From a virus, in IMG/VR virus record IMGVR_UViG_3300020186_000025, positions 1 through 61,630 of that record: a DNA stretch of 61,630 nt; one strand, written 5' to 3'. Each line of letters opens with the position of its first letter. Position 1 is the stretch's first letter. The position numbers were made by a program, and so were the translations under genes. The notes below the pieces were generated by a model that was given only the letters and a program-made list of their open reading frames with translations, ran no database searches and was not told the DNA's origin. This document shows, in pieces, positions 1,239 through 61,630 of this stretch.

Positions 1239-1245
1239 CACCGAA

Positions 1246-1319
1246 GGGACCGGGCAATGCCCGGTCCCACTCTCCCTTGTTATGCCGTCAATGGTGACGG
1301 CATTATTTAGGAGAAGAAG
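1246..1319 (+). promoter_or_regulatory. Intergenic two-hairpin cassette, copy 1
   Basis: A perfect 10-bp stem with loop AAT (1246-1268) is followed by a pyrimidine tract. A second hairpin (1282-1303; ATGCCGTCA, loop ATGG, TGACGGCAT) comes next, then the ribosome binding site AGGAGAAGAAG immediately before the next ATG. The first hairpin looks like a terminator or attenuator. The second sits just ahead of the ribosome binding site. The arrangement recurs in the next two gaps. Confidence 0.75.
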
Positions 1320-1586
1320 ATGAGTCATTATGACATCAACTATGCCAATCTTGCGCCGGACGCGAAGCGCACCCAGGCAATCCAGGATATCAAGAACCAC
1401 CTCGGCGTCAACAAATATGATGAGCTGACGGAAGTCATCCACCAGAACTACCAGTTGCCTCTCAGCTTGGATGACTTCCGCATGGCAGTTGCCATGTCGG
1501 GCATCCAGGGCTATCCTGTCCTCGCATGGCATGAGGTCCTGTGGCCAGGTGAGGAAGGCGAATCGGCCAGGGCGGGCGCGGCCTGA
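1320..1586 (+). CDS. Small hypothetical protein (88 aa)
   Basis: Function not recognised. It starts directly after AGGAGAAGAAG at the end of cassette 1. The product is mixed charged and aromatic (MSHYDINYANLAPDAKRT...) with a probable helical N-terminal half and an Ala/Gly-rich tail. It has no membrane segment and no cysteine motif. It belongs to the four-gene rightward operon, and good translation signals support it as real. Confidence 0.7.
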   Translation: MSHYDINYANLAPDAKRTQAIQDIKNHLGVNKYDELTEVIHQNYQLPLSLDDFRMAVAMSGIQGYPVLAWHEVLWPGEEGESARAGAA

Positions 1587-1592
1587 GCCTGC

Positions 1593-1664
1593 GGACCGGG
1601 TGAAAGCCCGGTCCTTCTCCCTTGTTATGCCGTCAATGGTGACGGCATTATTTAGGAGAAGAAG
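1593..1664 (+). promoter_or_regulatory. Intergenic two-hairpin cassette, copy 2
   Basis: GGACCGGG/CCCGGTCC hairpin (1593-1614), then TTCTCCCTT, then the ATGCCGTCA/TGACGGCAT hairpin (1627-1648), then AGGAGAAGAAG and the ATG at 1665. Almost identical to copy 3, and to copy 1 from the second hairpin onward. Confidence 0.75.
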
Positions 1665-1868
1665 ATGGAAGCCAATATCCCTGACTGGAAGAACGACGAA
1701 ACGGTCAAGGTGGTGTATGCACCTGATGGGACCGTGGTCATCGTGATCGGGATATGCCAGTGTCAAGGCGAAGGAGAAGAAATTCGGATTGTGCTGCCGT
1801 ATAGCAACACCATGACGGAAGAAGCCATCGGGCTGTTCGTCGCGGCTGCCGATGTTTTCGCCGAGTAG
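1665..1868 (+). CDS. Small hypothetical protein (67 aa)
   Basis: Function not recognised. The acidic 67-residue product has a hydrophobic central strand (TVVIVIGICQCQG) containing a CxC pair, and an acidic helical C-terminus. The start is set by AGGAGAAGAAG from cassette 2. Another cassette follows the stop codon, so expression is probably controlled as in its neighbours. Confidence 0.65.
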   Translation: MEANIPDWKNDETVKVVYAPDGTVVIVIGICQCQGEGEEIRIVLPYSNTMTEEAIGLFVAAADVFAE

Positions 1869-1880
1869 GTAAGAGGAATT

Positions 1881-1952
1881 GGACCGGGTGAAAGCCCGGT
1901 CCTTCTCCCTTGTAATGCCGCCAATGGTGACGGCATTATTTAGGAGAATGAA
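1881..1952 (+). promoter_or_regulatory. Intergenic two-hairpin cassette, copy 3
   Basis: GGACCGGG/CCCGGTCC hairpin (1881-1902), pyrimidine tract, then TAATGCCG/CGGCATTA hairpin (1913-1938) with one internal mismatch relative to copies 1 and 2, then TAGGAGAATGAA before the ATG at 1953. Confidence 0.75.
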
Positions 1953-2258
1953 ATGATCATCGGTAAATACCCTGGAATCAAATTGGTGTCGTTGCTCATC
2001 GCTTACGACAACAACAGCATCCCGGAAGGTTCCACCGAGGAACAATGGCTGCTTTCGCTGGATCCTGTCTTTGAGGTTGATGCTGATGCTGACGATCTGG
2101 CAATGCTGGATCAGTGGTGTCAAACCCTCACCAACGAGGAAGCAGAAACCTTGGCGGCCGGCGAATATGACGATATGATGGATATCGTTGCCTTGTCGCC
2201 GAAACCGGAATTCTGCAATCTTCTCTTCAACAGCGTGTTTGAGTGTAGGCAAGAATAG
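1953..2258 (+). CDS. Small acidic hypothetical protein (101 aa)
   Basis: Function not recognised. The product is strongly acidic (runs such as EVDADADDLAML) with one Cys pair near the C-terminus, and has no membrane segment. Highly acidic small early phage proteins can be DNA mimics or inhibitors, but nothing in the sequence proves this. It is the last gene of the rightward operon, with a strong terminator 12 bases downstream. Confidence 0.65.
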   Translation: MIIGKYPGIKLVSLLIAYDNNSIPEGSTEEQWLLSLDPVFEVDADADDLAMLDQWCQTLTNEEAETLAAGEYDDMMDIVALSPKPEFCNLLFNSVFECRQE

Positions 2259-2318: not shown

Positions 2319-2948
2319 TCATTCTTCTTGGTCTTCGTGATCTCTCACCTCGGTTGCCTCGCCTTCGATTGTCTCGCCGTCGGTGTAGCGGCTTTCCCAT
2401 TCGTCGATTGACTTTACCTCGGCAGGAGCGATCAGAACTCCACCAGAAACTTTCATCTCCACTTCTCTCTTGTCTCGGTATCCGGCTTCCACCCGACGCG
2501 CTTCCATCTGGATGAGTGGAATCGGGTAAATGGTCTCTTCGGTGAGCAGCTTTCCCGTGCGATCGAAAGTCTGCTTGATAGAGCCATTGAATGCGAGATT
2601 CTGGATATGCTGCACCATCTTATCACGATAAGTCTCTTCACATTCGGTGCAGGCTTCTGCGAATTCCGTATTCTTCGAGATCACTCTTTTAATCGCCGAA
2701 GAACTGACGCCGATCGCAGCGGCTGCTTTCCGGATCATTCCATGTTTCTCGTATTCATCCAAGAACTCGTTGTAGAGATCGGGAGTGAATGTTCCTTGTG
2801 ACGACACAATCTTCACGACTGTGGTTCCATCGAGGAGTTTGATCTCTTTAGCGTAGAATCGGCCCTGTTTGACTCCGTTCGTGACTTCGGCTCGGGTTGG
2901 TGAGCGCTTGGGAGATTGGAGATAATGGGAATCGTTGTCAGCGTCCAT
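2319..2948 (-). CDS. Probable terminase small subunit
   Basis: Likely the DNA-recognition subunit of the packaging motor. The start at 2948 (MDADNDSHYLQ) is chosen because AGGA lies about 8 bases upstream, giving 209 residues. The middle holds a helix-turn-helix (KHGMIRKAAAAIGVSSSAIKR, about residues 70-90), followed by a helical segment with the EFAEACTECEETYRDK pattern. A GGVLIAP segment and an acidic tail come next. This HTH, helical region and GGVLxxP order is typical of one class of small terminases. It is separated from the large subunit by almost the whole genome on the linear map, so a transcription factor remains possible. Confidence 0.65.
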   Translation of the reverse strand: MDADNDSHYLQSPKRSPTRAEVTNGVKQGRFYAKEIKLLDGTTVVKIVSSQGTFTPDLYNEFLDEYEKHGMIRKAAAAIGVSSSAIKRVISKNTEFAEACTECEETYRDKMVQHIQNLAFNGSIKQTFDRTGKLLTEETIYPIPLIQMEARRVEAGYRDKREVEMKVSGGVLIAPAEVKSIDEWESRYTDGETIEGEATEVRDHEDQEE

Positions 2949-3341
2949 TTTGAGAATCCTGTGTATGTAAAGAGAATGGGATCGCAGATCACCCGTATAA
3001 CTATAACCCAAGCGAGATCGCCTGACAATCGCAGATTTCCGTGATCAAAGTAAAGCCAGCGCCTGAGTAATATGAAGCACGACTTCTGAAGTAAAAACAA
3101 CAGGTTATCTCTATTTTTTTCATAATATAATAATATAATAATAATACTTTACTACATTCCCCCAGCTTGCGTTTCCAGCCAACTGCCGCCTCTTGGGCTG
3201 ACCACAAGCCAAAGAAACAGAAACCGCCAACTGCGCCCGACCCCGCCGCCACGTTTACCCTGCAACTCAAAACAGCCCCTCGGCTATCCTGATACCTGCA
3301 TATCCTGATGTTTACCAAAATTGACAAATGAAAACAAACAC
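2949..3341. other. Divergent intergenic region with AT-rich core
   Basis: No gene is seen. CAAAGTAAAGCCAG lies at 3046-3059. A stretch of nearly pure A/T follows (about 3108-3147, repeated ATAATA), then TACTTTAC (3145-3152). The rest is GC-rich, with TATCCTGAT twice (3285-3293 and 3301-3309). The same combination of AAAGTAAAGCC, AT-rich core and TACTTTAC recurs at 35097-35220. It is a candidate replication origin or shared control region. Confidence 0.5.
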
Positions 3342-3397: not shown

Positions 3398-3937
3398 ATG
3401 TCACCCCCAACCCTCATCCGACCTGCTACGATGGACAATATCCGGCTTTTCCATCGCCAAAAACCCAAATTCAACCCGGAAAAGTTTGATTTGCATGGTC
3501 TAAACAACATAACCATCATGATCAGACTCTACAAGTCCTTCAGTGCGATGCCGATTATGCGCACGATGGTCGAAAAGGACGCTCTTATGACTGAGTTGTT
3601 CAGTGATCAGCGCACAATTTCCAAATGTCAGGTCGGCAGGATTCTGGAATCAGTTGTCCAGTATCGGCTCAGCTTTCAGAAAAACTCCAGGCGACCTGAT
3701 GGATCTATAAACAGAATGTATTGGAGATGGACTCATCCGCTTGAGATCGTCTACGGGCTGGAATGTTTCATGATCCAAACATGGTTGTGTGACTGGATCA
3801 AATTGAACGGTGAGAAAGTCACGATTGAAGTCATCGAGGACGAACTTGAAGTTCTTCGTGATATGGACAATTCTGAGGAGAAAGAACTCTTCGAGGTGAT
3901 GGAGGATAAGGGTTTGTTTAGGGCTCGACGCCGATAG
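3398..3937 (+). CDS. Lone plus-strand hypothetical protein (179 aa)
   Basis: Function not recognised. AGGA lies 7 bases before the ATG at 3398, and an in-frame ATG at 3431 is the alternative. The protein appears mostly helical. It has a basic central region (QRTISKCQVGRILESVVQYRL) that could be a DNA-binding helix pair, and an acidic region (IEVIEDELEVLRDMDNSEEKELFEVMED) before a basic RARRR end. It is the only sizeable rightward gene between two leftward blocks and has its own promoter and a dyad at its end, so a regulatory role is plausible by position. Confidence 0.65.
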   Translation: MSPPTLIRPATMDNIRLFHRQKPKFNPEKFDLHGLNNITIMIRLYKSFSAMPIMRTMVEKDALMTELFSDQRTISKCQVGRILESVVQYRLSFQKNSRRPDGSINRMYWRWTHPLEIVYGLECFMIQTWLCDWIKLNGEKVTIEVIEDELEVLRDMDNSEEKELFEVMEDKGLFRARRR

Positions 3938-3970
3938 TGGAGGAGTCGACCGGCAGTCGACTCCTCCACT
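3936..3970. terminator. Perfect 15-bp dyad between convergent genes
   Basis: A perfect 15-bp stem around the loop CGGCA spans the stop codon of the rightward gene and faces the leftward operon end. The T-tract is weak (TTCCTTGTT). Its core GGAGTCGAC/GTCGACTCC resembles the dyads near the terminase at 58266-60617. Confidence 0.7.
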
Positions 3971-4255: not shown

Positions 4256-4561
4256 TTATTGAACAGAGTTGAAGGTCTGAAGAAGACTCCAGATGGGATA
4301 GAGCGTCAGAAAGATGCCGACAGCCCAAACGAAGAAGACTCCAACCTTCGAGAAGAGGCTGTAGAATACGATGACACATCTCCGATGTGACATCGCTTCA
4401 TTCAACCGATTCCAATCAGAAGCCGTGTTTCGAATCCCGAAGGCCTCCCTCTCTAGTATTCGCTTCACCTCGGCATCATACTCGGAGCTCCCATAAACGA
4501 TCGTCCGGGTGAGCGGCTGACGATTGAATATGGAGATGACGTTTTCCAGATCTGCGCTCAT
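4256..4561 (-). CDS. Small protein with C-terminal membrane segment
   Basis: The start at 4561 shares ATGA with the stop of the upstream gene, giving 101 residues. The first 65 residues are soluble and charged. The last 35 are strongly hydrophobic (VIVFYSLF...VFFVWAVGIFLTLYPIW), long enough for one or two membrane passes. It is probably a tail-anchored inner-membrane protein of unknown role. Confidence 0.65.
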   Translation of the reverse strand: MSADLENVISIFNRQPLTRTIVYGSSEYDAEVKRILEREAFGIRNTASDWNRLNEAMSHRRCVIVFYSLFSKVGVFFVWAVGIFLTLYPIWSLLQTFNSVQ

Positions 4562-4920
4562 GTCTGCGCTCCCTGTTGAGCCACCTTCTTGAACGGGATC
4601 ATGAAACTGTCCTCGAATCTGACGTGGTGAAGCCATCCGATATAAGCGACCCTGGGACCGCAGATCAGGCCGAGGCCTTGACTGTCATGTCCCAGGATCA
4701 GCCCCCTTCCAAAGATGGACTGGAGGACACCATCCACCTGGAAGGAGACGTCTCCAGGCTTCGGTTCACAGTAGTGAATCCGATCACCGAGAGAATTCCA
4801 TGTAGTAGGAGCGACATGCTTTCCCGTCAGAAAGCAGCCATAGAGATCGAGGGCGCTGTCGACGCGGACAACGTCAATCGTCTCCAGCGAGGGGTCGATA
4901 AGGAAACCATGGATGATCAT
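4558..4920 (-). CDS. DUF3846-like hypothetical protein
   Basis: The 120-residue protein opens with IHGFLIDPSLETIDVVRVDSALDLYGC, resembling the N-terminus of the phage DUF3846 family (ILIDP...ti..v, then a short helix ending near Tyr). Later segments (GLGLICGPRVAYIGW) suggest a beta-rich core. Biochemical role unknown. Its ATG overlaps the upstream stop by one base and its own stop overlaps the next start, so it is translationally coupled on both sides. Confidence 0.55.
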   Translation of the reverse strand: MIIHGFLIDPSLETIDVVRVDSALDLYGCFLTGKHVAPTTWNSLGDRIHYCEPKPGDVSFQVDGVLQSIFGRGLILGHDSQGLGLICGPRVAYIGWLHHVRFEDSFMIPFKKVAQQGAQT

Positions 4921-13511: not shown

Positions 13512-15884
13512 TCAGAATGGCTCCTTGATCAATTCGTCTGCACCATCAACTTCGGTTTCCCAGACTACTCTGCCATAGATCTTTTCCCAAGAATTTCGGC
13601 ATTTCTTGAGGTCTTTGAAATCATAGAAATACAGTCGTTTCTTCTTCCGCTCGTTCCGCCTTGCATCCTCGTTATAGACATCAACTGCGACACGCTTTTG
13701 AGTTCTCTCAATGTGAGGACAAACTCTTGTGAGGAATCTCCCAAGGGCTGTTTCATTTCCTCTTCTGCTGAACTTCCACTTTTCTGCGTAAGCTGTGAAG
13801 TCACTGATGATTGTGTCACAAGGAACAGCTTCTGTCCACTCAGCGTCGCTATCAACCAAACGACCATTCTGGAGTTTCCGAAACCACCATTCCTCATCCA
13901 CCGACATAGAAAGAAGCTTCTGCTCTTGGAGAGCATCAGTTTGCGGAACTTCACGAACTTGGAAACCTTCTAGATCGATGTTTTGTAAGTGGAAGAGCAG
14001 AGCCTCAAATCCACCAGACTCCATCTGTCTGACAATATCTCCAAAGTATTGTTTATTCTGTTTCGCGTTATCTGCTACTTCGAGAACGAAATATCTCCTC
14101 TCATCGCCCGAGGCACGAATAACGTGAGGATCGTTTGCAGCCATGATCAAGTGAACATAGTTGGGATAAGTTTCGACGTCGACGCCTTTCTGCTCAATCG
14201 GTATGCTATCTTCGGTGACCAGCATCTTGAGAACAGATTCGTGCTTCTTGTCGCCGGCGAAGAACGCTTCATCAGCAAACAAGCAGATTACATCACGAAG
14301 GTGAGCGTTGAAGTTACCAACGAGATGTGAGGGGTTGGCAACATGGAGATGATGTCTTCCAAAGAGTTTACCGAACAGAGTCGCCATCAACGACTTTCCT
14401 GTTCCTTTACCGCCTCTCATAACGAGTGCAACCTCTCCTGGAGAAGCTGGGACTTGAACAGCACGAGCCATCCATTTTATGAGATAAACGTAATATTCTT
14501 CAACTCCACTACAGACGTTATCATGAAGGTGATTGAGATACAACGAGCAGTCTCCAGGTTTCGGCTCAAAGCTGAAACCGCGCCATAGATTGTAGACACC
14601 TGGAAGATCACCCTGAGGCATGAACCTCATGTAATCGAACTGTCGTCTCATGCGATGGTTGATCCAGTATTTCCCAAGAGCGACTTGAATTGGCTTTCCC
14701 TCTTTATCGCTACCAACATCTACCATGATATTCGAATATCGATTACGAAGGTCTTCAAACGAAGAAATGGTCAACCGCGAACGGTTCATGATTTCGTCTT
14801 CAACTTCTTCGATGACTCGGCATTTCCCTCCAATGTTACCGATGATTGCATGGCGCTCATTCATCATTCGCAGATTTGGATCTTCTGCATGTTCTTTGGC
14901 ACGAGTCATCTGCCGAACAGCATACTTCTCAGGATTCTTGGACTCTAGGACACTCTCAGCAATACCCCAATCACGATCTGTGATTATAGCATACACGACT
15001 TCGTCCGGAACACCTGCTCGTAAAAGTTGACAGATACAATCGAACAGCCATGCCGATCTTGAGTTATCCCCCTCTTTCGGTTGGTCTGGGTGTCTCCCTT
15101 GGGCTACGATCACCTTGACACGATCTGGAACGTTCCACTCATCTAGTTCATTGAGATCTTGAACACGCTCCACGTTTCCTGGGACACTGACGCTCACACC
15201 ATATTCACCACCTTGATGGGAATCGATTTGAACGCCCTGTGCCTTCTTGAAATCTGAGATATCATATTCGTTTTTGTTGAATTCAAAACAGACCGCTAAC
15301 TCTTCGACACGGCCAGCTTTCTTTTTCTTCACATCAGGAATGTTGATTGTTCCTGGGAGTCGCATAATACGATCAATGTTATGACAGTGATCTCCACCAA
15401 AGACTTGCTCTAACCTCTTGTTGTAAAGTTCGAAGTCCTCACATTTCTTAACGTCGCCATCAACTATAATTTCTTTTGAAAGTCTCCAGAAGCCTTGATA
15501 TCCACCACCCGAGAATATGATCACAGTTGGTTTTGGAATTCCCTTTGGTATCTTGTCGGTGAGAAGCCCAAGAGCACGTTCCCGGCCTTCCTCGAGAGTC
15601 TCTCCTGGCTCTGGATCAATATCAATGTGAAGCCAACCGGCAGCTTTGATGTCTTCCTTGTGAGCCTTGGACTTCATGTCTTTTACGCATGGATTGACAT
15701 GGAAATAGATATTACGATTTCCGATGTATTTCACGAGCCACTTGCGACATTCATCGATTTCGTCGGACTTGAAGGTTCTTGTTTCGATTTTCTTACGATC
15801 AGTCTGAATCGCTGTCAGAACCCAAGGACCATCTTTACTCCATTTACTCAAGAAATCGATTGAGGCTTCGCTATTCCCCTGCAT
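13512..15884 (-). CDS. PrimPol-type primase fused to SF3 helicase
   Basis: Primes and unwinds DNA at the phage fork. The N-terminal third matches the archaeo-eukaryotic primase fold: HIDIDP (Asp88 and Asp90), SGGGYQGFW (about 126-133) and NIDRIMRLPGTIN (about 169-181). The C-terminal half is a D5-like superfamily 3 helicase (DUF5906 type): Walker A GGKGTGKS (491-498), Walker B ICLFADEAFF (about 533-542), and sensor HLIMAAND followed by GDERRYFVLEV. At 790 residues it is full length for the fusion. The start overlaps the upstream HTH gene by 14 bases. Confidence 0.88.
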   Translation of the reverse strand: MQGNSEASIDFLSKWSKDGPWVLTAIQTDRKKIETRTFKSDEIDECRKWLVKYIGNRNIYFHVNPCVKDMKSKAHKEDIKAAGWLHIDIDPEPGETLEEGRERALGLLTDKIPKGIPKPTVIIFSGGGYQGFWRLSKEIIVDGDVKKCEDFELYNKRLEQVFGGDHCHNIDRIMRLPGTINIPDVKKKKAGRVEELAVCFEFNKNEYDISDFKKAQGVQIDSHQGGEYGVSVSVPGNVERVQDLNELDEWNVPDRVKVIVAQGRHPDQPKEGDNSRSAWLFDCICQLLRAGVPDEVVYAIITDRDWGIAESVLESKNPEKYAVRQMTRAKEHAEDPNLRMMNERHAIIGNIGGKCRVIEEVEDEIMNRSRLTISSFEDLRNRYSNIMVDVGSDKEGKPIQVALGKYWINHRMRRQFDYMRFMPQGDLPGVYNLWRGFSFEPKPGDCSLYLNHLHDNVCSGVEEYYVYLIKWMARAVQVPASPGEVALVMRGGKGTGKSLMATLFGKLFGRHHLHVANPSHLVGNFNAHLRDVICLFADEAFFAGDKKHESVLKMLVTEDSIPIEQKGVDVETYPNYVHLIMAANDPHVIRASGDERRYFVLEVADNAKQNKQYFGDIVRQMESGGFEALLFHLQNIDLEGFQVREVPQTDALQEQKLLSMSVDEEWWFRKLQNGRLVDSDAEWTEAVPCDTIISDFTAYAEKWKFSRRGNETALGRFLTRVCPHIERTQKRVAVDVYNEDARRNERKKKRLYFYDFKDLKKCRNSWEKIYGRVVWETEVDGADELIKEPF

Positions 15885-16224
15885 AGTTGTCTTCCCAGAA
15901 CTTTACGAGATCAAAAGAAACTGGTGCAGTTCCAACTTCCATCTGATTGAGCCAATATCGAGTGATCCCGATCTGCTCAGCAATTTCACCCTGTGTCATA
16001 GAAGACCTACGACGACATAGCATAATCTTCTCGTTGACTTCCAGAGGTTCCACCTCACAGAAGTTCATTCCCTGATATTCTGACTGGTCACGCTCAACTT
16101 CGCCGTAGAAGTTACGAGTGATCCCGTTGACTCTCGCCATCTCGTCTTGAGACAGCCCTGACCTGCGTCGGCTGATCAACAAGGTCTCCCCCAACGTCAA
16201 CCTTTTGAGATCGATCTTATCCAC
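15871..16224 (-). CDS. Tandem double-HTH regulator, GTG start
   Basis: The 117-residue protein has two Cro/C1-type helix-turn-helix units. One is LGETLLISRRRSGLSQDEMARVNGI (first third); the other is EKIMLCRRRSSMTQGEIAEQIGI (second half). The upstream part of the ORF is a shadow of the nuclease gene, so the GTG at 16224 (VDKIDLKRLTLGE) is the likely start. Two HTHs in one chain would read a dyad-like DNA site as a monomer. It may be a repressor of the replication genes or an origin-binding factor. Confidence 0.7.
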   Translation of the reverse strand: MDKIDLKRLTLGETLLISRRRSGLSQDEMARVNGITRNFYGEVERDQSEYQGMNFCEVEPLEVNEKIMLCRRRSSMTQGEIAEQIGITRYWLNQMEVGTAPVSFDLVKFWEDNYAGE

Positions 16225-16613
16225 GTTACAAGTCTTTCTTTGTCTATGCCATTCATATGAAGAAGAGCATTCTCCCGCATTTCTGGTCTTGTCATTTTTT
16301 CGAAGTTTGACACGGCGAACATACCATCCCAGAAGAACCACTCTTGAGCGACTTGAGCACAAACGAGAACTGTGCCACCGAGTGCGGCTCTCTTTGCTAT
16401 AAAAATCTTCTGCGTTTGCAGCAAAGGGTGGGGAAATCTGACTGGCTGGTCGTCTGCTCGAACGGGCCATCTTCCCATATATTTGCACTCAATCCAGCCT
16501 CCAATATAATTCACGTCAAGTGTCCCAGACTTGACACGATTCTCAACTGGAAATGCCCCGAGGACTTTCAAAGCTTTAACCAGATTGGCTCTGGTCGTTT
16601 TATTCTCAGACAT
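16197..16613 (-). CDS. Putative endonuclease (VRR-NUC/resolvase-like)
   Basis: The start at 16613 (MSENKTTRANLVKALKVLG) lies 2 bases after the preceding stop, giving 138 residues. The core GTLDVNYIGGWIECKYMGRWP supplies the D-x(n)-ExK motif of PD-(D/E)xK nucleases. Q-x(n)-ALGGTVLVCAQV resembles the VRR-NUC and Holliday-resolvase-like fold. It probably acts on branched or flapped DNA, and sits beside the primase-helicase and dCTP deaminase. Confidence 0.6.
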   Translation of the reverse strand: MSENKTTRANLVKALKVLGAFPVENRVKSGTLDVNYIGGWIECKYMGRWPVRADDQPVRFPHPLLQTQKIFIAKRAALGGTVLVCAQVAQEWFFWDGMFAVSNFEKMTRPEMRENALLHMNGIDKERLVTWIRSISKG

Positions 16614-44214: not shown

Positions 44215-47200
44215 CACATGTTCCTTCTACCAGAACTGATCATACGAGCGGCCCGAGCGGCAAGCTGACTTTGACTTGCTTGGAACGATTGTGCATCGGG
44301 AGTGGTTACGTTGAAGATCACAGTCGTTCCTGCACTACCACGACCGCCGCCGGGCTCTTGACCACGAGGAGTGATTTCAACATGCTCACCATCTTTCAAA
44401 CGAAGCGGAACAAGACGATTGTCATGACCTGTCAGCCCGCCGAAGCCTGAACTCGGTCCCACTTGGAAGCTACCGCCAGCCGCTGCTCCTGGGATAGCAG
44501 CCGCTCCAATCCCGAATATTCTGTCAACGATGCCACCGAGGAAACCTGAGAAGACTTCAAAGAGACCTTTCTTTTTGCTACCTCCCCCATCAGTTCCTGC
44601 TTCACCACCAAACAACTGTTGAAAGGCTTGAGAGACAACAAGCTGAATTATCATTTTGTTGATATTGCGGATCAAAGAGCCGAAATCTGCTGTTCCATCA
44701 ACAACCAGATCAGCGATCGCAGACGACATACCATCAAAGGCAGTCGTAATGATATTCTCCATTTGCGAGGCTGCATCAGAAGTCTGCTCGATGATTTTGA
44801 GGAACCCTCTCTCGAAACCTGCTTGCATCGTAGTTTGGCTTTCAAGGAACCGAATACGAGCAGAGAGCACAGACTGAGAGAACTGATCTTGATTAACAGT
44901 TCCTTCTTGCAGCAGTTCATTGAGAACTTCCATTTCCATGGTATAAGTTCTCAATGGCTCCAGAAGAGAATCTATAATCTCCAGTTTTCTTTCCATAGCT
45001 TTGGAGATTTCTTCAACAGTCTTAGCAGCGCCACCAGAGCCACCAGTTCCACTTCCAGAAGAGAGAGCATCGAATTCTGCATTTACCATAGCAAGTCTCT
45101 GCTGATATTGAGCAGTGACGTCTGCAATTCTCGAAGTCGCGTCTTCACCGGTCTGCAGAGTTGCGATCAATTCGTTGTAACGACGAGTTTCAGTTTCAAT
45201 AGCACGAGCACGATCGTCAAGAGCACTGAGAGCACTGTCATCAGTGTATTCCTTGAAAGCCTCGTTCGCATTTCTTTGAGCAGAAGCAGTTCCATCGATC
45301 TCTGAACGAGCGAGAGCATAGGTCTCTTTCAAGCGACCTATCTGTGTTGCATAGTTGTCGATGGAGATGTTTTTAGCGTTGAGTAGTTGATCAAGTCCAC
45401 CAACTCCGCTTTGGAAAGCACTCTGGGCTTCCAGCAATTGATCAGCAACATCTTGAGCAGCAGCAAGTTCAGGAACAAATCCTGCCAAAGTTCTGAGAGC
45501 ACTGATTGTCGCCATTGCAGCACCACCGAGACCACGAATACTCGATGCAGCAATATTCGCACTTCCAGAAAGCCCAAGGAGAGCCCGATCTGCACTCCCA
45601 GCAACTCCTCCGAGAACTGCAAGGATCGCTCTCAAACGTTCTGTATCTTTTCCAGCTTCATCAGAAGACCTGGACAATTCAATCGCTTCAAGGGCAATGT
45701 CGCCGAGGACTCCGCCAGTTGTTGAAGCAATCTGCAACAAGGCCAGACGAAGTTGATTCCCATTCGTTGTTCCATCTTGGAGACCAGCAATCAAAATTAG
45801 AAGTTGAGCAGCACTAGCTGCTCCAGCAGAGCCAGTCGACTGGAGACGATCAGCAAGTCCGGAGAGAACATCACTGAGAGATTGAGCCCTCTGTTCAGTG
45901 TTCAGCAGTTGAACACCAAGCAAGGCAGATACATCGGAGATAGAAAGACCAGTAGTCTGTTCGTTCAATTCTTCAAATTTTTCACCGAGACGTGCGAAGG
46001 CATCCGTCATAATCTTCACAGTAGCATCAACTTCTGCACTGGTCTGTGAGAAGCGATTCTCGTTTGCAAGACGATCAAATTGATCGTTGATCGCTTTCAG
46101 CCTGTCAATATAAACATTTGAAGTCCCTGTAAACAGATCGACTGCCGCATTGTTCTTTGTCAACTCAGCAGTGACATCAGCAAAGGCTTCTTCTTCACGT
46201 CGAAGTGCTTCTTCACGACGAGTGAGACCAGCCTCGAGGTCCGATCTGTTGATATAAGAATCATAAGCAGAAGTGGCTTTCTCAATAGCCTCAGTCGTTC
46301 CATCGATCACAGCTATTGCAGCTATCAATCGCTGACCGAGAGTTTGCGTGGCATCTGAGAAAGTAACTTGTGATATCTTGCCTTCTGTCAATTGGGTGTT
46401 CAAGATTGCAAGACCAGCTTTGTAGATGGCGGTCACTTTTGCGATATCTTCTTGAACCTTAGCTGCTCTTTCAAATTCTGGAATGAAGTTGCTTATCGCT
46501 GCAAGAGCATCTCCAAATGTATCTATGTCTTTCACAGCCGCCGCGATTGAGCCACCTGCCTCACCAGCAGAGATACCGAGACGTTCGAGAGCGGCAGACG
46601 CTTCTGCCTCTGTTCCAGTGATAACTGTCAATACGTCTTGAAGACGATTCAAAGACTCTACAGTCGATCCAGTATCTCTTGATAACTTTATCAAGTTAGT
46701 TATCAGCGAAAGTGTGCCTGGGTCATTTCCGACCGAGATATCGGAAAGTTCATCTCTGAATTCTTCGAGATTTAAGGTTCCATCTTTAAGATTTTCAAAG
46801 ACTTCGTCAAGGAAAGCAGTTAGTGCTCTTGGGTCAATTCCGACCGAGATATCGGAAAGTCCATCTCTGAATTCTTCGAGATTTAAGGTTCCATCTTTAA
46901 GCTTTACTGAGGCTTCGTCAAGGAAAGCAGTTAGTGCGCTTGGGTCAATTCCGACCGAGATATCGGAAAGTCCATCTCTGAATTCTTCGAGATTTAAGGT
47001 TCCATCTTTAAGCTTTACTGAGGCTTCGTCAAGGAAAGCAGTTATAGGACTCTCTCCTGAATACTCTTTGAGAATTACAGAAACAGAGAATAGTCCTCTG
47101 CCGAAGCTTCGCATAGAGTCTGCTGCAATATCTGCCTGCTCAGTGATTTGAGTAAGAAGTTCGATCTCAGTAAACCCGAGAAGACCTTCTGTGACATCTT

Positions 47201-56771: not shown

Positions 56772-58253
56772 CTAGTTGGTTTGGTCTTGTTGAGACGGTT
56801 TTCCAGTCTTGTTCTTTTGGTCACCGTTGCGATCACCAGAAGGGTCACGTTTCAAGACTGTCTTCTCCTCCTTTTCGATTGCACCCAATTCCTCTTCGAA
56901 GGTCAACTTCGTGAGTCCTCGGTCGAATGCTATCTGGTGGAGGCTGCGGGCGGAAATCGGGAAACCGAGGTTCCTGGCAGTCTGCTGTTCGACCATCGTC
57001 TGGCCGGTCAGTTCAGTGTTGCTGAATTCTTTGTTGGGCTCAATAGAAACTTCTGATGGATTCAAGCCCATCCATTCGGCGCAAATCTTGAGTATCGCTT
57101 CAAGACCTTTCGCTCCCGTATCAGCGACCTGATTGAGATCGGCTGTGCGAGCAGCAATACGAATACCAAGACTCTTGCCGCTTTCACGTTCACGACTGGT
57201 GCTATCAAGTGATTGAGCACCCATGGAGCCAGCATGTCCACGATCGTCTTTCAGTGCTTCTCGCTGTTCCGAAAGACCATTGGCAGTGACTCCAATGAAC
57301 TTGGCATCGCCTTGAGGATTGCTGATATCGATTCTTGCACCGGCACCAGTCCGAAGAGTCTCATCCTCTTCTTGTGTGCCACCAATCACGACTAGTGTCT
57401 CTTGACCTTGCATGAACAGGTTCTGACGATAGTCTGCCTCACCACGATAGATCGTCATGCAGAGTTCACCGAGGTCCAGCAAGGGTGGCTCATCAGGATC
57501 AGATACAAGATCACACGAGTTGACAATAACGAAAGGAATCTTCTCCAGGGTCTTCCCGAGAAGAGATGGAGCCTTCAACTGATCTGGGTTGAACTCGACA
57601 TCTTTGGTAAGAAAGACACCGACTTTGTATGCAGCAGTAGACTCGTTTTCATCGATATTGCCGATGACCAGCACACGATACTTCTCATCGATCTCCCATG
57701 TGAACGAGGTCAACCCTCTCTCATATTCGGATTCATCGAGAACAACGAGATTCATCACCTGCGGAACAAGTCCCTCAACTGTTCCGTCATCCCAATTGAT
57801 GATACGCTCTGTTGTATAGGTGGCGATGTAGGGAGTGTTCCCACCAGAAGTCGGCAGATCAGCAAGGAGACCGATACGACCAGAAATCAGCTGTTCAGTA
57901 TTGATGCGACGGAGCAGCTGAGGAAGGTCTTCTCCTTTTGACGAACGAATTTCCTCCATACCTTTCGGCAGGATGATCTTCGCTGGCTGGGAATGAAGCA
58001 TCCCAACGGCTGTCTGGACAGCCTCGCGGACGAAGTTCGGGAAACGAGATCTCTTCAGATAAGAATCGTAAGCCTTGTATCCAGCTTGTTGAGTGTTGGA
58101 CATTCCATCAGCAATTTGTCCGCTCGTCGCTGGAAGATAGGCTGTTCTCTTCGACTTGACTTGACGCTGACCACGATAAGCATCGCTCATCAAAATCCAG
58201 TCTTCAAGCATCGCAACATATTGAGGGTGCTTCGAAGAAATGTCCCGTGACAT
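56772..58253 (-). CDS. Portal protein (DUF4055 type)
   Basis: Start at 58253 (MSRDISSKHPQYVAMLEDW) after GGAG; a second ATG at 58265 has no site. 493 residues. YLPATSGQ...AYKAYDSYLKRSRFPNFVREAVQTAVGMLHSQP, NTEQLISGRIGLLADLP, GEADYRQNLFMQGQETLVVIGG and the ESGKSLGIRIAARTADLNQVADTGAKGLEAILKICAEWMG helices fit the DUF4055 portal family. It forms the dodecameric DNA channel. Confidence 0.85.
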   Translation of the reverse strand: MSRDISSKHPQYVAMLEDWILMSDAYRGQRQVKSKRTAYLPATSGQIADGMSNTQQAGYKAYDSYLKRSRFPNFVREAVQTAVGMLHSQPAKIILPKGMEEIRSSKGEDLPQLLRRINTEQLISGRIGLLADLPTSGGNTPYIATYTTERIINWDDGTVEGLVPQVMNLVVLDESEYERGLTSFTWEIDEKYRVLVIGNIDENESTAAYKVGVFLTKDVEFNPDQLKAPSLLGKTLEKIPFVIVNSCDLVSDPDEPPLLDLGELCMTIYRGEADYRQNLFMQGQETLVVIGGTQEEDETLRTGAGARIDISNPQGDAKFIGVTANGLSEQREALKDDRGHAGSMGAQSLDSTSRERESGKSLGIRIAARTADLNQVADTGAKGLEAILKICAEWMGLNPSEVSIEPNKEFSNTELTGQTMVEQQTARNLGFPISARSLHQIAFDRGLTKLTFEEELGAIEKEEKTVLKRDPSGDRNGDQKNKTGKPSQQDQTN

Positions 58254-58265
58254 ACGAGTCTCCAT

Positions 58266-58286
58266 GGAATCGACGCAGTAGATTCC
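58266..58286. repeat. Dyad repeat copy 1 (GGAATC-N9-GATTCC)
   Basis: Just upstream of the portal start codons. The 9-base centre reads GACGCAGTA on the plus strand, so this copy is inverted relative to copies 2-5. Confidence 0.75.
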
Positions 58287-58356
58287 CCGCGTTTGAAATG
58301 CAGCATAGCCCCATCCGAGTAATCTGGCAAGGACTTTTATTCTCGTTACTTATGGA

Positions 58357-58377
58357 GGAATCTACTGAGTCGATTCC
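58357..58377. repeat. Dyad repeat copy 2 (GGAATC-N9-GATTCC)
   Basis: Centre TACTGAGTC. Touches the stop codon of the large terminase gene; with copy 1 it brackets the terminase-portal gap. Confidence 0.75.
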
Positions 58378-59903
58378 TAGTGCATTCCAGTCGTGGTCCC
58401 TTGACCAACCTTCATTCCAACGAAACGGACACGATATCTCGTTTCATCAGCAATGTGATCTTCTGTCCTTGTATCCACGTCATCAGGATCATCTTCATCT
58501 CTCGGAAGAACAGGAACAGTTCGTATCCATTGCTCACAGTTGTCAAAGATGAAGAGTCCTGGTTTCTCTCTTGGGCCATAGATAGGTTTCTCTTCAGCAT
58601 TCAAGCCCAAAATGGTGGGATGAGCGTTCCTGATCATCTGACGCATCTGCACCCAACCTGTATGACGCGATCCCGGACGCTTGTCAGCTTCTCCCCAATA
58701 GATTCCTTTGTAACGGACTCCATCTTCGAGTCTAACCTTGGTCTTCATGTCAACAGCAATGCAGTTTCCGTTCTCGGCAGCAAAAATCTGCGAGTCTGCA
58801 ACTCCACCCTTCACGCGGCAATACGATCCATCGCCACGAATACGATATCCCCACTTGATCTCTCTCTCGACCATCCCACGAGCGATGTCAGTCGCCAGCA
58901 TCTGCTTCCCTTCGTTGGACTTCCCTGTCCAACCATACCATTCGTGAATACGAAACAGATCTCCACGAACCGTAGATCGCCACTGACCGTTCTTCAACAG
59001 CACATCTTCTCCATTGCTCCTTGCCCACCAGCCAACAGAAAATGGACGTGATGAACCCCAGTCGAAACTCCGATCCATGGACCATCGATCTGGGATAACG
59101 AACGGACGAAGGACATTGAAAGCCGGGTCCCAGACATCGTCGAACATTCCACCAGCGACAATGTCCCACGACCCTTCGAGCCATGCTTTCCGCTCAGCAT
59201 CGTTGCGAGCAGCCGCTGCAATCTTGTTCACATAGTCAGGATCCTCTTTGAGAAGAACCAGGTTCTCTTCCAGACGGGAGAAGATTGACAAACGAGGTGG
59301 CTCAGGAATACCGCGTTCGTCCTTCAACTCCTTACGAACTTTCATGTTCATTGTAGAAGGCAGAAATCTCATTTTGACCCAGTTGTGACCGGGACCATAT
59401 GGGTTCGTCGTCGCACGAACCATCCGTGGCATACCAGGAGTTGAACTCCGACAGCACGAGAACATTCTCTTGTATCCAGTGTCGTCAGGCCAGTTGCAAA
59501 GTTCTTCCCAACCGATCCAGGGATATTCGTGACCGTGATAGTTCCAATAGTCGTCGTCCCGCTTGAATTGACGCAACAGAAGTTCTTCGCCAGAGAGCCA
59601 GACCCACTTATGCTCGCTTCCATTGAACTTGGCTCCAGGCCAAATCTGCGGAAACCACTTCTTTGTCTTGGTAATCACATCTGAAAGCTGTTTGTATGTC
59701 TGCCGGAACAAGACGCCCTTCCAACCGGCTCCAAATCCCTTACCGACGTGCATCCCGAACGACATCAGAAGGGAATCTGTCTTGCCACCGCCACGCGATC
59801 CTTGAAAGAGGACCTCAAAGATCGGAGTAGAAGAAAGAAACGCTTCCTGCGACCCTTTCTGGGGCTTCCAAATCACATTTTCTGGATATTGATCTAGAGG
59901 CAT
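58377..59903 (-). CDS. terL: Terminase large subunit
   Basis: Packaging ATPase-nuclease of 508 residues. Walker A is FQGSRGGGKTDSL (34-45). Walker B is in YPWIGWEEL, and the coupling motif in RATTNP. Nuclease acidic sites are in DRSFDWGSSRPF, GVADSQIF and DDVDTRTEDHIADETRY. It matches the headful-type (Terminase_6-like) layout. It starts 3 bases after the stop of the small upstream gene and ends at a dyad repeat. Confidence 0.92.
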   Translation of the reverse strand: MPLDQYPENVIWKPQKGSQEAFLSSTPIFEVLFQGSRGGGKTDSLLMSFGMHVGKGFGAGWKGVLFRQTYKQLSDVITKTKKWFPQIWPGAKFNGSEHKWVWLSGEELLLRQFKRDDDYWNYHGHEYPWIGWEELCNWPDDTGYKRMFSCCRSSTPGMPRMVRATTNPYGPGHNWVKMRFLPSTMNMKVRKELKDERGIPEPPRLSIFSRLEENLVLLKEDPDYVNKIAAAARNDAERKAWLEGSWDIVAGGMFDDVWDPAFNVLRPFVIPDRWSMDRSFDWGSSRPFSVGWWARSNGEDVLLKNGQWRSTVRGDLFRIHEWYGWTGKSNEGKQMLATDIARGMVEREIKWGYRIRGDGSYCRVKGGVADSQIFAAENGNCIAVDMKTKVRLEDGVRYKGIYWGEADKRPGSRHTGWVQMRQMIRNAHPTILGLNAEEKPIYGPREKPGLFIFDNCEQWIRTVPVLPRDEDDPDDVDTRTEDHIADETRYRVRFVGMKVGQGTTTGMH

Positions 59904-59906
59904 GTG

Positions 59907-60125
59907 CTATTGATCTCTCATGATATTAAGAATCGCGATATGGAGCAGCCAGAGAATGTCTTTTCGCTCCATGGAAGACGTCTTGAGCACGAAATCACCA
60001 TCTTGATCGTAACCAAGGACTATGATTTCAGTCATATCAAGTTCTTTTGACGTTTCGAGAGTCGATTCCACGGTCCTAAATCCGGGTCCTGGAAACTGTG
60101 TCTTTATGACTTCTGCTGGAGGCAT
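59907..60125 (-). CDS. Small phage protein upstream of terL (72 aa)
   Basis: Start at 60125 (MPPAEVIKTQFPGPGFR); the upstream part of the ORF runs through repeats and is not coding. The C-terminal part, MTEIIVLGYDQDGDFVLKTSSMERKDILWLLHIAILNI, matches a small domain seen in many phages (VLGYDxDGxxxxxSSxxxxxxxLWLLE). Function unknown. Confidence 0.6.
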   Translation of the reverse strand: MPPAEVIKTQFPGPGFRTVESTLETSKELDMTEIIVLGYDQDGDFVLKTSSMERKDILWLLHIAILNIMRDQ

Positions 60126-60145
60126 GTTATTGATCTCTTTGTGGA

Positions 60146-60166
60146 GGAATCTACTGCGTCGATTCC
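60146..60166. repeat. Dyad repeat copy 3 (GGAATC-N9-GATTCC)
   Basis: Centre TACTGCGTC, 21 bases before the ATG at 60125, in the leader of that gene. Confidence 0.75.
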
Positions 60167-60189
60167 TTTCAGATTCACTTTTACTTTCA

Positions 60190-60287
60190 TTTGAGCCTTC
60201 TTGCAAGTATGAAATTTTCTCGTCAGGCAGGAGGTATCTACTTCGTCGATACCTTGCAAGCACGAATTTTCTCTTCAGGCAGGTGGA
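60190..60287. repeat. Two direct repeats in the pre-terminase leader
   Basis: CTTGCAAG plus AAATTTTCTCGTCAGGCAGG (about 60200-60230) and CTTGCAAG plus GAATTTTCTCTTCAGGCAGG (about 60254-60284) are near copies, with dyad copy 4 between them. This 170-base stretch carries no gene. Confidence 0.65.
60233..60253. repeat. Dyad repeat copy 4 (GGTATC-N9-GATACC)
   Basis: Centre TACTTCGTC. Both arms differ from copies 1-3 by a matching A/T swap, keeping the pairing intact. Confidence 0.75.
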
Positions 60288-60318
60288 AAGCTGGTATTAT
60301 TTGAGAAAATACCAGCTT
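60288..60318 (-). terminator. Hairpin at end of 92-aa gene
   Basis: AAGCTGGTATT (60288-60297 region) and AATACCAGCTT (60308-60318) form an 11-bp stem that includes the stop codon of the leftward gene. No clear T-tract, so it may act as attenuator or mRNA-end protector. Confidence 0.5.
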
Positions 60319-60575
60319 AGCCCAAAGGAGAGCACCATGACCTCGAAAAGTCCCTGAGGTAAATTCGCACTCAGTATGTCACCAGCTTTGAGCAGCATCG
60401 CTTTTCTGACCACTCCAGTAACCGGCTCGCTCGACAGACGAAGATATCTCACTCCGTCGTCCATCAACTCTGGCCCTGTGGAGATTCTGGTTGGCATCTT
60501 GAAAGACACCCATGCAAGCCGACATGCTTTCAGTTCTGATTCGGTGATTGGGATCGACGAAGTAGATCTCAACAT
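60297..60575 (-). CDS. Small hypothetical protein (92 aa)
   Basis: Function not recognised. AGGAACAGAAA precedes the ATG. Mixed N-terminus, beta-like middle (DGVRYLRLSSEPVTGVVRKAMLLKAGDILS), and a hydrophobic C-terminus (GLFEVMVLSFGLSWYFLK) that could insert in a membrane. First gene of the terminase operon. Codons 2-8 carry a divergent sixth copy of the dyad repeat (60550-60570). Confidence 0.6.
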   Translation of the reverse strand: MLRSTSSIPITESELKACRLAWVSFKMPTRISTGPELMDDGVRYLRLSSEPVTGVVRKAMLLKAGDILSANLPQGLFEVMVLSFGLSWYFLK

Positions 60576-60596
60576 TTTCTGTTCCTTTTTGAGGGA

Positions 60597-60617
60597 GGTA
60601 TCTACTTCGTCGACACC
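60597..60617. repeat. Dyad repeat copy 5 (GGTATC-N9-GACACC)
   Basis: Centre TACTTCGTC. The arms would pair in the minus-strand transcript with one G-U pair, but would mismatch on the plus strand. Sits about where transcription from the adjacent promoter should begin. Confidence 0.7.
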
Positions 60618-60620
60618 TGT

Positions 60621-60649
60621 AGTTTACCATCTAAACATTCCAGGAGCAA
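60621..60649 (-). promoter_or_regulatory. Promoter of the terminase operon
   Basis: Minus strand TTGCTC (60649-60644), 17-base spacer, TAAACT (60626-60621). The predicted start falls at the edge of dyad copy 5, so the mRNA would begin with that hairpin. Confidence 0.6.
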
Positions 60650-60845
60650 TGGGCGAGTTTCCTGGGTCTGCTTGGGCTCCACAGTTGTCTGGAGTCTATC
60701 TCCTCGATTTCATCCTCGATTTCATCCTCGATTCTTATTCTTATGTTTATGATTGCACCATTTTGATTGATTGAGGGCGAGGGAGAGCGGCACGGGACCA
60801 CTCCTAGGGAGCACTCTGCCTCAAGCCGTGCGTGGGGGCGGGTGA
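60650..60845. other. Gene-free stretch with 12-bp repeats
   Basis: TCCTCGATTTCA is repeated about three times (60701-60735). The rest is AT-rich and then GC-rich (60775-60845), with no credible reading frame having a start codon. Confidence 0.5.
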
Positions 60846-61033
60846 ATAGGGATTAGGAATAGGGATTAGGAATAGGGATTAGGAATAGGGATTAGGAATA
60901 GGGATTAGGAATAGGGATTAGGAATAGGGATTAGGAATAGGGATTAGGAATAGGGATTAGGAATAGGGATTAGGAATAGGGATTAGGAATAGGGATTAGG
61001 AATAGGGATTAGGAATAGGGATTAGGAATAGGG
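60846..61033. repeat. 13-bp tandem array GGGATTAGGAATA
   Basis: About 14 perfect head-to-tail copies of a 13-bp unit built from the related words GGGATTA and GGAATA. It has no spacers, so it is not a CRISPR array. Confidence 0.95.
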
Positions 61034-61070
61034 AGCCACTGGCCACTGGCACTGGCAGGCTGGCAGGCAG

Positions 61071-61109
61071 AAAATAGTTGTTTACATATGCACAAGTTAG
61101 GTGTAGGCT
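61071..61109 (+). promoter_or_regulatory. Possible promoter in right copy of the 26-bp end repeat
   Basis: 61071-61096 matches 235-260. TTTACA (61081-61086), 17-base spacer, TAGGCT (61104-61109), reading into the ORF at 61147. Confidence 0.45.
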
Positions 61110-61146
61110 AACGGTAGGGCAATACCGCCCACATAGGTTAATAAAC

Positions 61147-61446
61147 ATGCCACGCACCCCACCCGGGCCCATACACAACTGGCGCAGCACCTACACTGCT
61201 ATGCACATAGCACACCTGCAACAACAACGGGTTGTAGAAATGCTTGTGCAGGCGCTGTGCTGTGCAGTTGCTAACCGCCAGCACGCCACCACAATAGCAG
61301 CGCTAGAAAATTCTATTGCAGCGGCAGCCACTGTGGAAAATAGCATGTTGCTGGCATTGCCTGGCATTGCCCAGTTGTTGCCTACGCTGCAAACAATGCC
61401 CGGGCTAGGTGTGGCCAGCGGCAGTGCAATAGGCAATAGGCAATAG
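61147..61446 (+). CDS. Small hypothetical protein at right end (99 aa)
   Basis: MPRTPPGPIHNWRSTYTAMHIAHLQQQRVVEM...: Ala- and Leu-rich, probably helical, with a repetitive low-complexity look. A weak AGG lies 11 bases upstream. The last codons run into a 7-bp repeat, so the frame may be a by-product of repeats. It is unlike any virion or replication protein here. Confidence 0.4.
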   Translation: MPRTPPGPIHNWRSTYTAMHIAHLQQQRVVEMLVQALCCAVANRQHATTIAALENSIAAAATVENSMLLALPGIAQLLPTLQTMPGLGVASGSAIGNRQ

Positions 61447-61460
61447 GCAATAGGCAATAG
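61427..61460. repeat. 7-bp tandem repeat GCAATAG
   Basis: About five copies of GCAATAG, overlapping the end of the small ORF and leading into the palindrome. Confidence 0.8.
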
Positions 61461-61497
61461 GCCACACCTGGGCTAGCCCAGGTGTGGCCTATTGCCT
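61452..61497. repeat. 46-bp perfect palindrome
   Basis: Two 23-base arms, AGGCAATAGGCCACACC... and its exact complement, meet at GGGCT/AGCCC with no loop. It would form a cruciform or a very stable hairpin. Confidence 0.95.
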
Positions 61498-61514
61498 TGC
61501 CATGCTAGCCCAGG

Positions 61515-61630
61515 TCTGTCAGTGTCTGTCAGTGTCTGTCGGCGTCAGTGTCTGTCGGCGTCAGTGTCTGTCGGCGTCAGTGTCTGTCGGCGTCAGTGTC
61601 TGTCGGCGTCAGTGTCTGTCGGCGTCAGTG
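61515..61630. repeat. 16-bp tandem array at right end
   Basis: GTCAGTGTCTGTCGGC repeated about six times, preceded by shorter GTCAGTGTCT units. The contig ends inside it. Confidence 0.9.

What the first reader, a model, noticed from the sequence alone, without database searches (positions are those of the whole stretch)
58266..60617. Family of 21-bp dyads around the terminase operon with compensatory changes
Five clear copies (58266, 58357, 60146, 60233, 60597) have 6-bp arms around a 9-base centre, and a weaker sixth lies at 60550-60570 inside codons. Copies 1-3 have GGAATC/GATTCC; copy 4 has GGTATC/GATACC, a paired change. Copy 5 keeps pairing only as a G-U in the leftward transcript. This suggests RNA hairpins rather than only protein sites. 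They sit in leaders and at gene ends, and one lies at the predicted mRNA 5' end. Possible roles are put-like antitermination, mRNA processing, or packaging signal.
Basis: partly seen in the sequence, partly recalled or inferred. Interest (0 to 1): 0.72.

Follow-up and report, generated by a model that had tools for sequence, protein, structure and literature searches.

The report
Mobile hairpin repeats in phage genome
A family of 21-25 bp palindromic repeats sits at promoters and gene borders around the DNA-packaging genes of an uncultured YuA-like phage and comes and goes between near-identical relatives, so it looks like a small self-spreading DNA hairpin repeat rather than a fixed RNA switch.

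Summary
The dyads are real and far beyond chance. The window holds ten strand-matches to the consensus, against 0.07 expected. A seventh copy was missed at about 3936-3970. The window is a YuA-like (Mesyanzhinovviridae-type) phage record from IMG/VR.
In seven co-linear records (window plus relatives at ~88-91% nucleotide identity), copies appear, vanish, multiply in tandem (4 x 26 bp), replace a gene's last codons, or sit in frame inside genes. Close relatives at the same positions lack them. About a dozen insertion sites all lie in ~10 kb around terminase and portal. No copy occurs in relatives' replication regions, in other YuA-like loci, in INPHARED, or as a repeat family in 84,980 prokaryote species.
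Arms co-vary between paralogous copies (5 both-sided cells, 0/500 shuffles).
Best reading: a lineage-specific, mobile, REP/PeSL-like hairpin repeat that turns over by replication slippage or template switching. It may affect expression where it flanks promoters, but it is dispensable. REP tags and a RAYT transposase were tested and not found, so it is not filed as a REP.

The parts
58266..58286 (-). element copy 1, in the leader of the portal gene, just upstream of its Shine-Dalgarno GGAG
   Evidence: present in window, G001, G002, L005 (arms partly broken), half left in L008, absent in L006
58357..58377 (+). element copy 2, begins at the terminase stop codon, 26 bp upstream of the -35 of the portal promoter
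   Evidence: absent in L006, 22-nt variant in L008, second adjacent copy in L087
60146..60166 (+). element copy 3, in the leader of the small ORF before terminase; the only copy found in every relative that covers the place
60233..60253 (+). element copy 4, GGTATC/GATACC arms, inside a 52-bp tandem duplication
   Evidence: absent in G001, G002, L005, L006
60550..60570 (-). element copy 6, degenerate, inside the first codons of the 92-aa ORF
   Evidence: absent in G001 and L006
60597..60617 (+). element copy 5, one pair broken (G.U in leftward RNA), overlaps the predicted transcription start
   Evidence: absent in G001 and L006
3936..3970 (+). seventh, divergent copy: AGTGGAGGAGTCGAC-CGGCA-GTCGACTCCTCCACT, directly after the stop codon of the + strand ORF 3398-3937; G001 has a different hairpin (GGGCTCGAC/GTCGAGCCC) at the same gene end
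   Evidence: folds at -28.4 kcal/mol
60203..60286 (-). region of the 52-bp tandem duplication (CCTGCCTGAmGAGAAAATT...CTTGCAAG twice) that holds copy 4
   Evidence: repeat family D5; alignment
60288..60318 (.). 11-bp hairpin AAGCTGGTATT/AATACCAGCTT over the end of the 92-aa ORF; G001 has element arms GGAATC/GATTCC and L006 GGGAGA/TCTTCC at the same place
58302..58330 (-). sigma-70-like portal promoter TTGCCA-N17-TATGCT between copies 2 and 1, conserved in relatives
60621..60649 (-). putative promoter TTGCTC-N17-TAAACT just upstream of copy 5
   Evidence: read; a consensus match only
56772..58265 (-). portal protein gene
   Evidence: phrog_145 E 1.5e-104, DUF4055
58377..59903 (-). terminase large subunit gene
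   Evidence: phrog_2 E 1.7e-26; YuA-like relatives
59907..60125 (-). small conserved ORF before terminase (72 aa from ATG)
   Evidence: (phrog_11040, unknown function)
60297..60575 (-). 92-aa ORF, unknown function, copy 6 in its first codons

Best explanation
The dyads are copies of a short, lineage-specific, mobile palindromic repeat (unit about TGGA-GGAATC-TAC-NNN-GTC-GATTCC, 21-25 bp) that has spread inside the packaging/portal region of one small clade of YuA-like phages. Shown: one sequence family; filled versus empty positions between relatives; tandem amplification; in-frame and gene-end insertions; decay of individual copies; excess indels at the copies between near-identical strains. 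Inferred: the hairpin lets copies form and move locally during DNA replication by slippage and template switching, possibly helped by a host or helper ssDNA (HUH-type) enzyme. One templating event rewrites both arms at once, which explains paired arm changes without selection on RNA. Selection then leaves copies mostly at gene borders and next to promoters, where they may tune transcription or mRNA stability but are dispensable.
For: Family far above chance. Filled/empty sites: small ORF-TerL junction has 4 tandem 26-bp copies in L008 and none in window, G001, G002, L005, L006; portal-scaffold junction is filled in L008 and L087, where the element replaces the portal C-terminus and brings the stop codon, and is empty in the others; TerL-portal gap has both copies missing in L006. 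G001 carries a 30-nt in-frame insert in the orthologue of window ORF 4558-4920 (HVAP-TT-W versus HVAP-ISLMEESTESIP-W) and another copy in frame in the next gene. Among near-identical G001/G002/L005, both indels within the ~4.9 kb downstream of the repeat region fall in element copies; the other differences there are substitutions. Decay at orthologous copies. About 12 insertion sites all within ~10 kb; none in window or relatives over 7.6-30 kb or 38-56.7 kb. Confined to this clade.
Against: No movement was observed, only inferred from comparisons. No transposase of the REP type is in the window or in ten relative records. No clean target-site duplication: ATGGA repeats at one G001 site only. 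The tight clustering and the flanking of two promoters could mean function rather than local spread. Copy 3 is kept in all five records that cover it.
Confidence: 0.62

Rival explanations
1. Functional RNA hairpins in leaders and at gene ends (5' mRNA protection, intercistronic processing or attenuation; put-like antitermination), with structure selected and sequence free.
For: Paired arm changes between copies: 3 pairs and 5 cells changed on both sides, 0/500 shuffles for cells. At the end of the 92-aa ORF three phages have three different but paired arm sets, and the gene end at 3937 has different hairpins in window and G001. Each full copy folds at about -7 to -8 kcal/mol.
Against: Orthologous copies break pairs or are gone. 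Relatives' portal mRNAs look nearly leaderless (L019, L021, L022). Predicted start of the copy-5 transcript lies inside the element. No Rfam match. No U-tracts.
Confidence: 0.2
2. Dyad DNA operators: 21-bp symmetric sites (GGAATCNAC half-sites) bound by a dimeric phage or host regulator at the late promoters.
For: 21 bp is two helical turns; half-sites are symmetric; two promoters (portal; small ORF before TerL) have a copy just upstream and a copy just downstream in some genomes; copy 5 overlaps a predicted start. The window encodes an HTH protein (15871-16488).
Against: Copies inside coding sequence, 4 tandem copies behind a gene, complete absence at the portal promoter in L006 and of the whole family in relatives about 80% identical in TerL that keep the genes. 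Centre and T.C mismatch conserved, not just half-sites. No copy near early genes.
Confidence: 0.12
3. Packaging (pac-type) sites bound by the small terminase subunit.
For: They cluster around TerS (2319-3011) and TerL; the family is thought to package by headful with permuted ends (PMC11946847).
Against: Number and position change between phages with 94-97% identical TerL; copies inside and behind structural genes; only copy 3 is constant.
Confidence: 0.05

Closest known systems
REP / BIME elements (GTAG- and CGTC-tagged palindromic repeats of bacteria, REPINs)
   Same: 20-40 bp, short imperfect palindrome with one-sided flank, mostly extragenic, inverted doublets (copies 1/2 and 5/6), occasional intragenic units, tandem clusters, gain and loss between strains (PMC3686654, PMC3733652)
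   Different: In a phage, few copies, no GTAG or CGTC tag at the end (TGGA/GGAG instead), no RAYT gene, no bacterial genome with the same family
PeSL/PeaR cassettes of T4-like phages (promoter-early stem-loops)
   Same: Phage-borne stem-loop repeats in intergenic gaps, next to sigma-70-type promoters, linked to local rearrangement (described in PMC4503421; original papers not held)
   Different: Not T4-like; around late/packaging genes, not early genes; no terminator T-run; element also inside genes; promoter not part of every copy
Rickettsia palindromic elements (RPE)
   Same: Palindromes that insert in frame in coding sequence (here G001 copies); RPE-4 and RPE-6 are classed as CGTC REPs in PMC3733652
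   Different: Much shorter, phage host, no shared sequence or CGTC tag at the end; size of RPEs is from general knowledge
put sites of phage HK022
   Same: Hairpins close downstream of promoters (general knowledge)
   Different: put sites are longer two-hairpin RNAs at early promoters; copies here are single hairpins, in both orientations and inside genes

Membership tests
REP (GTAG superfamily, RAYT-mobilised) | GT[A/G]G tetranucleotide at the 5' end of a palindrome | tested here: not met
   flank is TGGA/GGGA; GTAG occurs only inside the palindrome
REP (GTAG superfamily, RAYT-mobilised) | cognate RAYT (Y1 transposase, PF01797) in the genome | tested here: not met
   none in the window or in 10 relative records; host unknown, so a trans-acting enzyme is not excluded
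REP (GTAG superfamily, RAYT-mobilised) | 20-40 bp palindrome in multiple extragenic copies, often inverted doublets | tested here: met
CGTC-tagged REP | CGTC at one end, 8-9 bp stem, 4-5 nt loop, CCA tail | tested here: not met
   CGTC lies in the centre of single copies; only the L008 tandem array could be read in that frame
PeSL cassette | early promoter plus terminator stem-loop as one shuffling unit between genes | tested here: inconclusive
   promoter-like sequence flanked by copies at two places, but no T-run and copies occur without a promoter
structured RNA family | match to a known family, or compensatory change at orthologous positions | tested here: not met
   no Rfam match; orthologous copies break pairs; paired changes only between paralogous copies, apart from different hairpins at two gene ends
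put antitermination site | cis-acting RNA that modifies RNA polymerase | not testable with these tools
   needs transcription assays

The most novel reading that the evidence does not exclude
A phage-specific class of minimal mobile hairpin (21-25 bp, self-templating, no dedicated transposase) that proliferates in one genome module, is copied by replication template switching, and supplies leaders, stop codons and in-frame peptides to phage genes.
Probability: 0.25. Interest if true: 0.7.

Novelty: new variant of a known kind. Interest (0 to 1): 0.5.

Why it matters
Short palindromic repeats are common in bacteria, but I know of no REP-like family described in a YuA-like phage, and the paper searches made here turned up none. 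Here near-identical genomes catch gain, loss, tandem growth and in-frame insertion of a 21-bp hairpin. This makes it testable how tiny hairpin repeats spread without their own transposase and how they reshape promoters and gene ends. It is also a caution: paired arm changes between copies are not proof of a selected RNA structure.

Tried and rejected
Host REP origin: one scan of 84,980 species genomes gave five scattered single hits, no genome with a family. RAYT/Y1 transposase in the phage: none. Wider viral spread: extra pattern hits (L084-L086, L088-L090, L092-L094, L116, L133-L141) were read and are unrelated (coding-sequence coincidences or other hairpins). Similar repeat families in other YuA-like loci: none of this kind. 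Rfam: nothing. Intrinsic terminators: the scan finds none at the dyads. INPHARED phages: no match to the element. Simple 5-bp target duplication: seen once (ATGGA at G001 3266), not elsewhere. GANTC (CcrM) sites in the arms: lost in copies 4 and 5, so not the conserved feature. The original PeSL papers could not be read.

Full report
What the window is. The window is a whole IMG/VR virus record of 61,630 bases. Its terminase matches YuA-like phages of Pseudomonas and others at up to 58% identity. Portal, scaffold, major head protein and a small terminase subunit are recognised by PHROGs, and a GTA-type tail protein by Pfam. The small terminase subunit (2319-3011, -) and large subunit (58377-59903, -) are neighbours on the circular map: relative G001 (22,378 bases) runs through the junction of the window's ends.

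The observation. The consensus with up to three mismatches hits only these six places (ten strand-matches) against 0.07 expected. The alignment of 17 copies from seven records sharpens the unit to TGGA-GGAATC-T-AC-NNN-GT-C-GATTCC. T11, A12, C13, G17 and T18 are invariant, so the 'nine-base centre' is two more pairs, a three-base loop and a conserved T.C (other strand G.A) mismatch. Loop length varies in some copies (TACTTGAGTC in G001 9214, TACAAGGGTC in L008 1701). A seventh, divergent copy with perfect arms is at 3936-3970.

Relatives. Seven co-linear records (window, G001, G002, L005, L006, L008, L087) at ~88-91% nucleotide identity carry the family; relatives at about 80% terminase identity (L009, L010) do not. 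Positions differ. (a) Small ORF-terminase junction: four perfect tandem 26-bp copies in L008, none in the other five. (b) Portal-scaffold junction: one copy in L008 and L087, where it replaces the last portal codons (SQQDQTN-stop in the window becomes KESTQ-stop, the stop being the TAG of the element), none in the others. (c) Terminase-portal gap: two copies in window, G001, G002 and L005; L008 has one intact and one half; L087 has two adjacent copies plus remnants; L006 has none. (d) End of the 92-aa ORF: a copy in G001, G002 and L005, a different hairpin in the window, weak pairing in L006. (e) G001 has copies inside two genes: a 30-nt in-frame insert relative to window ORF 4558-4920, and another copy in frame near the start of the next gene. 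(f) Copies 4, 5 and 6 are found only in the window among the records that cover them.

Turnover. G001, G002 and L005 are nearly identical. Over roughly 4.9 kb from the small ORFs into the capsid genes they differ by scattered substitutions and two indels inside the alignment, and both indels are in element copies: a 10-nt partial duplication at copy 2 and one base at copy 1. In the window, copy 4 lies in a 52-bp tandem duplication. The elements are therefore instability hot spots.

Clustering. The distinct insertion sites (about twelve) lie between window positions 4.9 kb and, through the junction, 56.75 kb, about 10 kb in all. The window itself and relatives of the replication region (L123-L127, L130, covering 7.6-30 kb) have none. 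G002 has none between 38 and 56.7 kb.

Does pairing hold? Between copies, three pairs change on both sides (five cells, 0/500 shuffles as high), in copies 4, 5, 6 and in L087 (GAAGTC/GACTTC). These are paralogous copies. At orthologous positions I see only breaks or losses: site 3 TATTCC and site 2 AATTCC in G001/G002/L005, site 1 GAAATC or AAAATC, half of site 1 lost in L008, sites 1 and 2 gone in L006. Two gene ends (3937 and the 92-aa ORF) do keep some hairpin with different sequence in different phages; this is the best remaining hint of selection for a hairpin.

Promoters. A TTGCCA-N17-TATGCT promoter between copies 2 and 1 is conserved in the clade and, with its -35, in more distant relatives, several of which look almost leaderless for portal. 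The generic scan finds no more promoters than shuffles do, but it does list this one. Copy 1 would start about +8 to +12 of that transcript, copy 3 about +4 to +8 of a weaker one, and copy 5 would overlap the start of a third. These starts are predictions.

Mechanism. I judge a mobile or self-templating palindromic repeat most likely. Gain, loss, tandem growth, insertion in genes and decay are shown by comparison. The route (slippage and template switching at hairpins, perhaps a trans-acting HUH enzyme) is inferred: complex replacements and lack of constant target duplications point to template switching, and no Y1 transposase is in the phage. A templated copy of one arm from the other changes both arms at once and so mimics compensatory evolution.

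Known relatives. REPs and PeSL cassettes are the nearest kinds. Size, palindrome, inverted doublets, intragenic units and clusters fit REPs (PMC3686654, PMC3733652), but the end tag and the transposase do not. PeSLs are known to me here only through PMC4503421. No bacterial genome of 84,980 species carries the family (stringent pattern), and no isolated phage in INPHARED matches. I therefore file it as a new variant of a known kind, works-like REP/PeSL, member of neither.

Noticed in passing
1241-1964 (+): A second repeated intercistronic module, three copies between small + strand ORFs: terminator-like hairpin GGACCGGG..CCCGGTCC, then hairpin ATGCCGTCAATGGTGACGGCAT, then AGGAGAAGAAG-ATG; G001 has the same modules. 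It looks even more like a PeSL cassette than the dyads.
   Followed up: partly
60780-61630 and 1-650: Repeat-rich, largely non-coding stretch split by the record's ends (13-bp GGATTAGGAATAG array, CTGTCGGCGTCAGTGT array, CCTGCCAGCTACC-type repeats, 21-bp hairpin at 61452-61497); the matching stretch of near-identical relatives G001/G002/L005 is full of indels. Possible packaging or replication region.
   Followed up: partly
46711-47044 (-): Repeats of about 111 bp inside the tail tape-measure-like gene (EASVKLKDGTLNLEEFRDGLSDISVGIDP units), also seen in G002.
   Followed up: no
58302-58330 (-) and L018, L019, L021, L022, L023: The promoter upstream of portal is conserved across YuA-like relatives, and in several the -10 lies only 7-8 nt before the portal ATG, suggesting leaderless portal mRNA.
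   Followed up: partly
L008 1-175: Tandem array of four perfect 26-bp copies whose frame can also be read as CGTC-GATTCC-TTGGA-GGAATC, i.e. like a CGTC-tagged REP.
   Followed up: partly
59894-59919 and 60116-60138: The start regions of terminase and of the small ORF before it share a duplicated AGAGATCAATA..CATGCCTC sequence (families D13, D15).
   Followed up: no
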